Below, piece after piece: positions 1-56,795 of a stretch of DNA of 64,000 nucleotides; within the stretch, counting starts at the first letter, position 1, and every line of letters starts with the position of its first letter. This DNA is from Frigoribacterium sp. CG_9.8. GTDB taxonomy: Bacteria > Actinomycetota > Actinomycetes > Actinomycetales > Microbacteriaceae. The notes under the pieces were generated by a model, which made no database searches, was not told where the DNA came from, and saw nothing but the letters and a program-made list of their open reading frames with translations. The DNA lies in NCBI RefSeq assembly GCF_015751965.1, contig NZ_JADOVH010000001.1:744001-808000 (forward strand), read 5' to 3'. The position numbers were made by a program, and so were the translations under genes.

Positions 1-1615
1 CCCGACCATCCGCCCCACTGCGATGCAGGGCAAACCACTGCGCCTCATCGTCGAACTCGGTCGTCAGCCGCGACATTCGTGGGTCGGTGAGATCGGGGCG
101 GCCACGGCGCAGAGCCGCAAGCGAGCGGTAGAGCTGCAGCAGGCGGGCGTGGTCGCCCTCTGCAGGCTCATCCCAGTCGAGCTTGGATCGCGTGAAGGTC
201 TCCGGGTCCTGCGGGTCGGGCACGATGGCCGGATCCCAGCCCACCTTCGCGAACTCTGCGATGCGTCCCACGGCTGTGGCGATGCCGAGCTCGGGTTCCG
301 GATGAGCGGTGAAGAACTGCCACGGGGTGGAAGCGCCCCACTCCTCACCCATGAACAGCATCGGAGTGAACGGACCGGCGAGCGTGAGCACCGCTGCGAT
401 CGCCAGTTGGTCCGCATCGAGCTGGGCCGAGAGCCGGTCACCCACAGCACGGTTGCCGATCTGGTCGTGATTCTGGTTGGCGACCACGAGCCGCCACGAC
501 GGCATGTGTTCGATATCGATCGGATGCCCGTGGTCACGTTCGCGAAACGATGAGTAGGTGCCGTCGTGGAAGAAGCCGTGTGTCATCACTCGGGCGAGGG
601 CATCCAACCGGGCGAAATCGGCGTAGTAGCCGGTCGTCTCGCCGGTGAGAGCGACGTGAACGGCATGGTGGAAGTCATCGCTCCACTGCGCCTGCAGGCC
701 GTACCCACCGCTGCCACCCTCGCGGGGGGTGATCAGTTTCGGGTCGTTGAGATCGGATTCAGCGATGAGGCTGAGCGGCCGGCCGAGGAACGCGGAGAGG
801 GCATCCGTTTGCTCGGAGAGCTCCTGGAGGAGGTGTTTCGGCGACTCGTCGACAAGGGCGTGAACCGCATCGAGGCGAAGGCCATCAACATGAAAGTCAC
901 GAAACCAGCCCAGTGCATTTTCGATGATGTACGCCCGAACCGCCGGCTCATCCAGATTGATCGAATCACCCCACGTGTTCGACGAACCGGAACGAAGGTA
1001 CGGACCGAACCGCGGCAGGTAGTTGCCGCTCGGTCCAAGGTGGTTGTAGACGACGTCCTGGATCACGCCGAGACCGCGCGCATGTGCGGCATCCACGAAC
1101 CGTTCGTATGCCGCCGGGCCTCCGTAGGTCTCGTCGACGGTATACCAGAGCACTCCGTCGTAGCCCCAGTTGTGAGCGCCGTTGAATCCGTTGACCGGCA
1201 GTAGCTCAACGAAGGCCACCCCGATGGAGACGAGGTGGTCGAGCTTGGTGATTGCCGAATCGAGGGTGCCCTCGGGGGTGAAGGTGCCGAGGTGCAGCTC
1301 GTAGATCACACCACCGGCCAGTTGGCGACCCGTCCACCCGCTGTCGGTCCATTCGAAGTCGCTGCTGAAGATGCGGGAGAGCCCATGGACCGACTCGGGT
1401 TGGCGACGGCTGCGCGGATCCGGCAGCGGTGTCGGATCGGTGTCGATGAGGTAGCCGTAATCAGTACCCGACAGCCCCTCGGGCGCCGTCCACCAGCCAC
1501 CCGCGATCGCCGTCATCTCGTGGCGCTCGCCGTCGAGTAGCAGTGTGAGAGTGGAAGCCGTGGGTGCCCAAATATCAAAGGTCATCACTTCAGCGGTCGT
1601 CACTTCAGCGGTCAT
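1..1615 (-). CDS. treZ: Malto-oligosyltrehalose trehalohydrolase, C-terminus beyond the window
   Basis: Glycoside hydrolase family 13 enzyme that releases trehalose from maltooligosyl-trehalose, the last step of the TreYZ route from glycogen to trehalose in the cytoplasm. The open frame covers about 538 residues and leaves the window at its C-terminal end; the family is usually about 570–590. Motifs on the minus strand in order: [22 protein letters not shown] with the nucleophile Asp, LIAESDLND with the acid Glu, and [10 protein letters not shown]. The start used is the ATG at 1615, which overlaps the treY stop; an in-frame ATG at 1585 is an alternative. The residues between the two ATGs are a duplicated five-residue unit ([10 protein letters not shown]) encoded by a 15-nt tandem repeat. 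Third gene of treX–treY–treZ. Confidence 0.95.
1581..1615. repeat. 15-nt tandem repeat at the treY/treZ junction
   Basis: Plus strand: GTCATCACTTCAGCG followed by GTCGTCACTTCAGCG and a partial third GTCAT. It encodes the first residues of TreZ and overlaps the last codons and stop of treY. One of many 15-nt-period arrays at gene ends in this window. Confidence 0.8.
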
Positions 1616-3926
1616 TGTGGGCCTCATCACTCGGCACCAGCAATGCCACCGGATACCGCGCAAGCAGTTCGGACAGTAGCAGTGTGTTGCTATCAAAGAT
1701 GCGACCGGTGAAGACGTCGGTGACGCGCCGCCCGGGGACGATCAGCGAGGTGTCACCCCACCCGCCGTTGCGCGCGAGTCCGATCGGAAGGCGGGTTGCG
1801 ACGGTCAGCGCGCCGCCGCGGTCAAAAGCGATGACATGTGTGGCGGCGGATCCATAGGCCGCGATCGCGGCATATCGGGTGAAGAGTCCTGGATGGTCAC
1901 GACGCAAGCGCAATGAGCGGGCGGTCACGAGCAGCTTTACGGCACCCGAGTCGTCGATCGGTGGCTGCGCTCCGGCGTCGATAGCGGCGAGGTAGAGCTG
2001 CCGTGCGTCGAAGTCGACTGGGCGACGGTTATCGGGGTCGACGAGGGAGGTCTCCCACAGCTCGCTGCCCTGATAGACATCCGGAACGCCGGGGGCAGTG
2101 AGCTGGATCACCTTGGCCGACAGCGAATTCGACCAGCCCGGCTGTCGCACGGTGTCGAGCAGGTGCTCGAGGATGCCGGCGACGTGCTCATCGTCGAAGG
2201 CGGAGTCGATGAGCGCGTGCATGCGCGTTTCGAATTGATCGCTCGGGGCCGTCCAGGCGGTGGAGTTGCCTGCCTCGCGGGCCGCCTTCTCGGCATAGGC
2301 GTGCAACCGCTCTCGGCTGGCCGGCCAGGCTCCGATGATCGCCTCCCAGAGCAGCGATTCGAGCGGACCGTCCCCGAGTGGCGCCGCCTCGTGCAGCTGG
2401 TGGAGAGCAGCTGACCACTCTTCGGGGATTTCGGCGAGCACGCTGATGCGTGCCCGCACGTCCTCCCCGCGCTTGGTGTCATGGGTGGAGAGCGTGGTGA
2501 GGGAAGAAGGAAAGCTCGCCTGTCTCAGTTGCTGGCGGCGGTGGAATTCGTCGATTCCGATCGAGAACTCGGACGGATCTGCACCCACCTCGGTGAGCGA
2601 TCCCAGTCGCGTGTAGCGATAAAAAGCGGTGTCTTCCACCCCTTTGGCCATCACCATTCCCGACGTCTGCTGGAAGCGGATGGCGGCCGGATGACTCGGA
2701 TCACTGAGCGTCGGAAGCAGGGCGTCGATGCGCGCAGAGACATCCGGGCGGTGCTCCTTGGCCGACTTCACGGCCTCGTGCAGGTGCTCGATGCCGAGCG
2801 GAAGGTAGGAGCGGTAAACCGGGAAGCATGCGAGCAACTCGGCAATGGCATCCGCTGTGCTGTCGCCGGGCTGCGGCAGAGACGCTCCGAGATCACGCTC
2901 GATGCGCAGCACCTCCGAGCGCAGGATGCCGTCGGCGACCGCTCGCTTCGTGCTGTGGATGAGGTGGGTCCAGGAAACCGCTTCGGTTGAGTCCCGCAGG
3001 GCGGAGTCGAGGGTGTCGAGCGCCGTTTGCCCGGCCGGATCCACGAGCACCCGGTCGACATCCGCGAGAGCGTCGTAGCCGGTCGTTCCCGACGCGGCCC
3101 AGGCGGTGGGCAGTTGTTCGTCTGACTCGAGGATCTTCTCCACGAGCACGTAGGCACCCTTGGTGGCTGCCGCGAGCGCATCGAGGTACCGGGCAGGGTC
3201 GGCGAGGCCGTCGGGATGATCCACCCGCAGGCCGTCGGCCAGGCCATCGGTGATCCAGCGGATGATCTCCGCGTGCGACTCCTCGAACACCCACGGTGTC
3301 TCGACACGAATGCCGGCGAGGCTGTTCACGGCGAAGAATCTGCGGTAGTTGAGCTCGGTGTCGGCCCGGCGCCAGTTGATCAACTCGTAGTTCTGGCGGG
3401 AGTGGACCTCTTCCGGCGAGGCTCCGTCGTCGGCGGTGCCGGGAGCCAGCGGGAAGCGGTTGTCGAAGTACGCTAATTCGCCGTCGATGATTTCGAACAC
3501 CGGATCCGGCTCGTCGCCGAGCACGGGGATGCGCACCTTCCCGCGGCCGAATGCCCAGTCCACATCGAAGGCTTCCGCGTAGCGCGAGTCACGCCCGTGG
3601 GTTAGCAGATCCCACCACCAGAGGTTCTGCTTCGGTGTCGCAACTCCCATGTGATTGGGAACGATGTCGATGAGCACCCCGAGACCGAGCGCGCGGGCGG
3701 CCGCGGATGCGGCATCCAGTCCTTCTCGACCGCCGCGAGCCGGATCGATGCGCGAATGATCGACGACGTCGTACCCGTGGTCAGAGCCCCGCTCCGCCGT
3801 GAGGATGGGGGAGAGGTAGAGCCAGTCCACGCCAAGAGCGTGCACATAACCGGCGATGTTTGCTGCGGCGTGCAGATCGAAGGACTCGCGGATCTGCAGC
3901 CGATAGGTGGAGACCGGCACGCGCAT
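1605..3926 (-). CDS. treY: Malto-oligosyltrehalose synthase
   Basis: GH13 intramolecular transglucosylase that turns the reducing-end alpha-1,4 bond of a maltodextrin into an alpha,alpha-1,1 bond, giving maltooligosyl-trehalose for TreZ. The start is placed at the ATG at 3926, giving 773 residues beginning [12 protein letters not shown], the usual TreY N-terminus; the frame is open further upstream but that stretch lies inside treX in another frame. Visible motifs: [19 protein letters not shown] (nucleophile Asp), [12 protein letters not shown] (acid Glu) and [10 protein letters not shown]. The start codon shares one base with the treX stop (TGATG), so translation is probably coupled; its own stop overlaps the start of treZ. 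Confidence 0.96.
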
Positions 3927-56681: not shown

Positions 56682-56752
56682 GACGGCATTCTCGCAAACG
56701 GCAGCGGTCTTATCCTCGCAAGCGCCACGGGGCTTTGATCGCCGGTCCCAAA

Positions 56753-56795
56753 AAATACTCGGAAGTCCTAGTAGAAATACTCGGAAGTCCTAGTA
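56753..56795. promoter_or_regulatory. Two palindromic operator-like sites 22 bp apart
   Basis: TACTCGGAAGTCCTAGTA (18 bp; 14 of 18 positions palindromic, consensus TACTnGGAnnTCCnAGTA) occurs twice, within exact 21-bp copies at 56753–56773 and 56775–56795. The 22-bp spacing places both on the same face of the helix. The second copy ends 12 nt before the acyl-CoA dehydrogenase ATG. Confidence 0.75.

What the first reader, a model, noticed from the sequence alone, without database searches (positions are those of the whole stretch)
1581..56795. Population of 15–22-nt tandem repeats parked at gene ends
Tandem arrays with exact or near-exact units occur at 1581, 3954, 7871, 9820, 14506, 18831, 19843, 21660, 27112, 29410, 34754, 47116 and 56753. 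Nearly all lie within the first or last codons of a gene or just outside it. The period is 15 nt in eight of thirteen, even in two fully non-coding arrays (29410, 47116), so reading-frame selection alone does not explain it. This suggests a copying mechanism with a preferred unit length that is tolerated where no fold is damaged. I know of no described element of this kind in Microbacteriaceae.
Basis: partly seen in the sequence, partly recalled or inferred. Interest (0 to 1): 0.8.

Follow-up and report, generated by a model that had tools for sequence, protein, structure and literature searches.

The report
Bacterium full of ~15-base stutter duplications
This bacterium's genome carries, by extrapolation, hundreds of tiny tandem duplications, mostly 13 to 18 bases long, that look like copying stutters of whatever sequence was already there and survive mainly between genes and in protein tails, so they look like a mutation signature rather than a new genetic element.

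Summary
All 13 arrays exist within 7 bases of the stated starts, eight with period 15. In 980 kb sampled from the 2.85-Mb genome there are 155 arrays of period 12-24; a fifth-order Markov copy of 464 kb gives 1. Exact repeats of period 13-17 run at 96/Mb here, 29/Mb in the closest congener, 15/Mb in ten other genera, but 73-75/Mb in small samples of G012 and G137, so the genome is dense, not unique. Outside predicted genes the periods form a hump at 13-18, not a spike at 15; inside genes multiples of three survive, which leaves 15. Array units are unrelated to one another. Where alignment with the congener is clean, arrays replace one resident unit. Ordinary indels sit in similar places, so position reflects tolerance. 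Best reading: slipped-strand duplication with a preferred length near 15 nt, kept where harmless. Ku and LigD were not found here, and Ku-less relatives are not denser. The array at 56753 is different: a conserved palindrome pair, probably an operator. What sets the length is unknown.

The parts
1580..1615 (-). 15-nt array, 2.4 copies, at the N-terminus of the minus-strand gene called 2-1615 and overlapping the stop of gene 1605-3926
   Evidence: net +12 against congener G005
3953..3998 (-). 21-nt array, 2.2 copies, near the C-terminus of the minus-strand gene 3926-6145
   Evidence: net +21, exactly one unit, against G005
7869..7993 (-). 15-nt array (also read as 30 and 45), C-terminal tail of a GntR/FCD regulator
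   Evidence: G005 gave no alignment for window 7.8-12.3 kb at this place
9816..9863 (+). 15-nt array, 3.3 copies, across the stop codon of an alpha/beta hydrolase gene
14506..14542 (.). 16-nt array, 2.3 copies, outside predicted genes, upstream of an exonuclease-domain gene
   Evidence: net +16 against G005, where CGGCC occurs twice, 16 nt apart, at the single copy
18829..18885 (-). 15-nt array, 3.8 copies, in the C-terminal third of ORF 18603-19595
   Evidence: flanks too different from G005 for a useful net length
19842..19885 (-). 15-nt array just after the start codon of ORF 19614-19904
   Evidence: by reading, one 15-nt unit in G005 and four here
21663..21712 (.). 19-nt array, 2.6 copies, between convergent genes
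   Evidence: inside a 124-nt net insertion against G005
27112..27150 (-). 15-nt array, 2.6 copies, N-terminus of a biotin-dependent carboxylase subunit
   Evidence: net +42 against G005
29417..29458 (.). 15-nt array, 2.8 copies, 7 nt after a stop codon
   Evidence: net -199 against G005, whose spacer is longer and unrelated
34754..34801 (.). 18-nt array, 2.7 copies, between convergent genes
   Evidence: not bracketed by the G005 alignment
47114..47178 (.). 15-nt array (30 in the best row), 19 nt after the stop of an FAD oxidoreductase gene
   Evidence: net +58 against G005
56753..56795 (.). Not of this class: two 18-bp palindromes 22 bp apart upstream of an acyl-CoA dehydrogenase gene, pair also in G005; proposed operator

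Best explanation
The arrays are independent, in-place tandem duplications of ordinary resident sequence. The proposed event is slipped-strand mispairing: a nascent strand lets go, re-anneals upstream (helped, but not always, by short direct repeats) and copies the same 13-18 nt again; further slippage inside the array gives 3 to 7 copies. Duplications are kept where an insertion does little harm: between genes, and in tails and other tolerant parts of proteins. Inside genes multiples of three survive, so the hump becomes a spike at 15. Shown: the size hump, the frame filter, unrelated units, indel-like placement, and local duplication in the clean comparisons. Inferred: replication slippage as the actual event, and whatever sets the length near 15 nt.
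For: Real and genome-wide. Size and frame: exact repeats in 980 kb, outside predicted genes 6, 11, 12, 18, 6, 6, 3 for periods 12-18, none at 19-21 and 2 at 22; inside genes 11 at 12, 40 at 15, 7 at 18 and one in all at 13, 14, 16 and 17. By TRF, 63 of 66 coding arrays but 44 of 89 others have a period divisible by three. Pooled other Microbacteriaceae, 1.77 Mb, coding and non-coding together: 1, 8, 24, 9, 6, 10 for 13-18, 1 at 19, none at 20-23. In place: 75 arrays in 280 kb, 49 bracketed by G005 alignment, 28 longer here, 12 shorter, 9 equal; clean single-unit cases are +16 at window 14506 and +21 at 3953. Junction homology of 3 nt or more in 9 of 16 strict two-copy cases, about 6% expected without it. 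Unrelated units. Placement like other indels.
Against: Nothing here explains the near-absence of exact periods 19-23, which simple slippage does not predict. In a looser list of 33 two-copy cases, 20 have junction homology of 0 or -1, so homology is often not used, and partial third copies may be decayed three-copy arrays. Net length is a positive exact multiple of the period in only 8 of the 49 bracketed rows, one of them the operator and two sharing one bracket; 12 rows are shorter here and 9 equal. In blastn gaps, 1 of 124 insertions of 9 nt or more scored as a tandem copy. Comparison rests on one congener at about 80% DNA identity. No second strain was compared.
Confidence: 0.72

Rival explanations
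1. Fill-in and joining of staggered double-strand breaks (Ku/LigD end joining or another end-joining path) makes the duplications, and the stagger sets the length near 15.
For: 20 of 33 two-copy cases in the looser list have no junction homology, and a stagger would give a sharp size window. Ku was found in 8 of 10 congeners and LigD_pol in 6 of 6 congeners searched.
Against: This 99.98% complete genome gave no Ku and no LigD_pol match, yet 22 of 135 arrays match perfectly, which suggests young events. Ku-independent end joining is not excluded.
Confidence: 0.1
2. Selection for function: arrays are kept as flexible tails, spacers, terminators or binding sites.
For: Coding arrays keep frame; the array at 56753 is conserved as a palindrome pair.
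Against: Units are unrelated; arrays are mostly absent or different in the G005 comparisons that could be made; single-copy forms do not fold better than random non-coding DNA (79 arrays, p=0.12); ordinary indels sit in similar places.
Confidence: 0.08
3. Loss of a repair function drives the high density.
For: This genome gave no Ku or LigD_pol match; G012, also dense, gave no NucS match.
Against: Ten genomes of other genera without a Ku match have 15/Mb exact p13-17 (6 in 400 kb); nine Ku-bearing samples other than G005 and G012 have about 12/Mb (5 in about 420 kb, my sum). NucS, two IMS polymerases, Exo VII and PolA 5'-exonuclease are present here. G012 is 12% contaminated and has Ku. A review says NucS does not correct indels (PMC8228993, passages).
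Confidence: 0.15
4. A mobile or dispersed repeat family inserted at gene ends.
For: Two window arrays share TGTGCCGAC by eye (18829 and 19842).
Against: Sharing of 10-mers between arrays is below ten random matched sets (50 against 65-99).
Confidence: 0.02

Closest known systems
De novo tandem repeats in a beta-lactamase gene, some bounded by direct repeats and attributed to replication slippage (PMC4169377; passages read)
   Same: Duplication of resident DNA; three of eleven bordered by direct repeats of 3-8 nt, the others with different junctions; the authors regard it as general in bacteria.
   Different: There in one gene under drug selection; here genome-wide without known selection and with a 13-18 nt window. 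The passages I read state no such window.
Close and clustered direct repeats in prokaryotic genomes (PMC4060949; passages read)
   Same: Short repeats close together, often over-represented in intergenic DNA; the column headed Acti gives 3.00 for the pattern 8n4g24.
   Different: Tandem patterns there stop at 11-nt units in the passages read; no period spectrum at 12-24 nt.
VNTR loci of Clavibacter michiganensis, also Microbacteriaceae (PMC3691591; passages read)
   Same: Tandem repeats found with the same program in the same family; 58 loci in one genome, eight chosen because polymorphic.
   Different: Units of 20-45 bp were chosen on purpose; no size preference discussed in the passages read.
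Mycobacterial MIRU-type VNTRs (recalled)
   Same: Actinobacterial intergenic tandem repeats.
   Different: As recalled they share a unit family, which argues against here.

Membership tests
Slippage-made tandem duplications (direct-repeat bounded) | Extra copy duplicates adjacent resident sequence | tested here: met
   Met in the clean cases, +16 and +21 against G005; overall 28 of 49 bracketed arrays longer here, 12 shorter, 9 equal
Slippage-made tandem duplications (direct-repeat bounded) | Short direct repeats border the duplicated unit | tested here: inconclusive
   9 of 16 with 3 nt or more; 20 of 33 with 0 or -1 in the looser list
Slippage-made tandem duplications (direct-repeat bounded) | Formation during replication, independent of recombination | not testable with these tools
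   needs genetics
VNTR / minisatellite | Head-to-tail copies of a unit of about 10 nt or more | tested here: met
VNTR / minisatellite | Copy number varies between strains | not testable with these tools
   the genome collection holds one genome per species
Dispersed repeat family (MIRU, REP, mobile element) | Units at different loci share a sequence | tested here: not met
   50 array pairs share a 10-mer, random sets 65-99
Ku/LigD end-joining duplications | Ku and LigD polymerase encoded | tested here: not met
   0 matches for PF02735 and TIGR02778 in G000

The most novel reading that the evidence does not exclude
Microbacteriaceae have a distinct duplication process with a built-in length ruler of about 15 nt (for example the distance over which a polymerase, its proofreading site or a flap processor holds a freed strand), and this genome, with a few relatives, runs it several times faster than its closest congener, leaving a genome-wide natural indel signature.
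Probability: 0.35. Interest if true: 0.7.

Novelty: new variant of a known kind. Interest (0 to 1): 0.45.

Why it matters
If the size window is real, it is a mutational signature that points to one enzyme geometry, and it gives a direct test in culturable bacteria of how short tandem duplications start. It would also explain how protein tails can lengthen in five-residue steps without a selected function.

Tried and rejected
Mobile-element origin: rejected on unit sequence. Hairpin-driven duplication: single-copy forms of 79 arrays outside genes do not fold better than random non-coding DNA (mean -6.25 against -5.83, p=0.12). Detection-threshold artefact: rejected for periods >=10 with a length-neutral exact-run criterion. 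Ku loss as driver: not supported. Loss of NucS, Exo VII or PolA 5'-exonuclease: all three present here. Insertion spectra from blastn gaps at 80% identity: 1 of 124 insertions of 9 nt or more in G000 scored as a tandem copy, a result against my reading that I put down to blurred gap placement without proving it; one search used bracketing anchors instead. By raw TRF count this genome is not an outlier everywhere: 198/Mb here, but 200/Mb in 40-kb samples of G018 and G137 and 159/Mb in G012; for TRF periods 13-17 G137 (4 arrays) and G012 (21) reach 100 and 95/Mb against 100 here. Literature: eight searches showed no paper on a 15-nt duplication preference in Microbacteriaceae among the rows listed; several lists were cut (for example 20 of 1,161), and only the held open-access library was searched. 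Passages of four papers were read. Gene calls are from my own simple gene finder, so coding and non-coding classes are approximate; with the limit at 100 codons only 9 arrays outside genes remain.

Full report
Observation. All 13 arrays are present; eight have period 15, the others 16, 18, 19, 21 and 22. With the window and 20 further stretches of its own genome (464 kb), 82 arrays have period >=10 and score >=58, 30 of them of period 15; second- and fifth-order Markov copies give 3 and 1. With 980 kb there are 155 arrays of period 12-24, 89 outside predicted genes (622/Mb) and 66 inside (79/Mb). The 135 arrays of period 12-19 extrapolate to about 390 in the genome, spread thinly (0-6 per 20-kb stretch, mean 2.6).

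Comparison. Exact tandem repeats with period 13-17: 96/Mb here (94 in 980 kb); G012 73/Mb (16 in 220 kb); G005 29/Mb (18 in 620 kb); 0-25/Mb in nine other Ku-bearing samples of 20-80 kb; 15/Mb in ten genomes of other genera without a Ku match (6 in 400 kb, of which G137 has 3 in 40 kb, 75/Mb). In 80 named actinobacterial loci there are 18 in 1.59 Mb, 11/Mb (my sum). E. coli K-12 gave no TRF array and one exact repeat, of period 8, in 200 kb. By raw TRF count (all periods >=10) small samples of G018 and G137 equal this genome, so the distinction lies in the 13-17 class and is shared by G012 and perhaps G137. G012 is 12% contaminated and shows equal-scoring hits on two contigs, so its number is uncertain. 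Of the 12 congeners searched, G005 is closest (80% protein identity in the carboxylase). Microbacteriaceae as the family is an inference: G014, same family, has a contig of the same length (419,595) as a named Okibacterium record.

Size. Outside predicted genes, exact repeats in 864 kb number 5, 10, 12, 18, 5, 5, 2 for periods 12-18, none for 19-21 and 2 at 22, non-uniform at p about 1e-9. Some probably lie in small unannotated genes; limiting the TRF set to arrays with no open frame of 150 codons leaves 26, with 2, 7, 5, 1, 4, 3 at 13-18, a limit somewhat biased against multiples of three. So the intrinsic preference is a hump at 13-18, and the spike at 15 belongs mostly to genes: 40 exact repeats there have period 15, 11 have 12, 7 have 18, and one in all has 13, 14, 16 or 17. 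The pooled sample of other Microbacteriaceae, coding and non-coding together, shows a similar range at lower density.

Origin. Alignment with G005 shows, in clean cases, an array in place of a single resident unit: window 14506 is +16, with CGGCC twice, 16 nt apart, in G005; window 3953 is +21; at 19842 I read one 15-nt unit in G005 and four here, just after the start codon. Of 75 arrays in 280 kb, 49 could be bracketed: 28 longer here (two share a bracket, one is only +1, one is the operator), 12 shorter, 9 equal. The equal ones are degenerate coding similarity shared by both species, so the raw TRF count overstates recent events. Near G000:C1:812115 the two species carry different arrays in the same intergenic gap, which fits tolerance (by reading). 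Array units are unrelated. Junction homology of 3 nt or more occurs in 9 of 16 strict two-copy cases, about 6% expected; in the looser list 20 of 33 have none.

Placement. Median distance to a gene end is 57 nt against 235. In the 280-kb comparison, indels of 6 nt or more outside arrays behave alike: 46% (extra in G000) and 50% (extra in G005) lie outside genes, against 16% of random aligned positions and 62% of arrays; of coding ones 28% and 72% lie within 60 nt of a gene end, against 11% at random and 26% of arrays. Gene ends are therefore where insertions are tolerated, not a target.

Repair genes. Ku and LigD polymerase gave no match in this 99.98% complete genome; Ku was found in 8 of 10 and LigD_pol in 6 of 6 congeners searched. 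Ku gave no match in 51 of 149 family genomes; of the ten sampled, five are listed as lacking it and five are inferred from their absence among the 98 matches. They are not array-rich as a group. NucS, Exo VII, PolA 5'-exonuclease and two IMS polymerases are present here. Why this genome is dense stays open; relaxed selection with genome reduction was not tested.

Exception. The array at 56753 is a pair of 18-bp palindromes, TACTNGGANNTCCNAGTA, 22 bp apart, upstream of an acyl-CoA dehydrogenase gene. G005 has the pair too; with one mismatch allowed the motif occurs nowhere else in either genome and not in four others searched. It is best read as a tandem operator; no regulator was identified.

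Known background. Duplications bounded by direct repeats and attributed to slippage are described (PMC4169377, passages); clustered direct repeats are reported as over-represented in Actinobacteria (PMC4060949, passages); NucS is reported not to correct indels (PMC8228993, passages). The 13-18 nt window and this density did not appear among the rows listed in eight searches of the held library. On checking, confidence in the best explanation was lowered from 0.75 to 0.72 because few bracketed arrays differ by an exact multiple of the period and because G012 and G137 come close in density.

Noticed in passing
window 56753-56795: Two 18-bp palindromes TACTNGGANNTCCNAGTA 22 bp apart upstream of an acyl-CoA dehydrogenase gene, present as a pair in the congener G005; probably a local operator with an unidentified regulator.
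   Followed up: partly
G000 whole genome: No Ku and no LigD-type polymerase match in a 99.98% complete genome, while most congeners searched have both.
   Followed up: partly
G000, G005, G013: A second, smaller PF01367 (flap-endonuclease-like) hit found in seven of ten genomes searched is missing in these three.
   Followed up: no
window 7800-12265: This stretch (GntR regulator, hydrolase, amino-acid permease and neighbours) gave no alignment at the collinear place in G005.
   Followed up: no
window 3193-3257, 30416-30457, 52763-52803: TRF hits with zero net length against G005: old coding similarity, not recent duplications.
   Followed up: yes
G012 C1 and C3: Equal-scoring PolA and IMS hits on two contigs and 12% contamination suggest a mixed assembly; no NucS match in it.
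   Followed up: no
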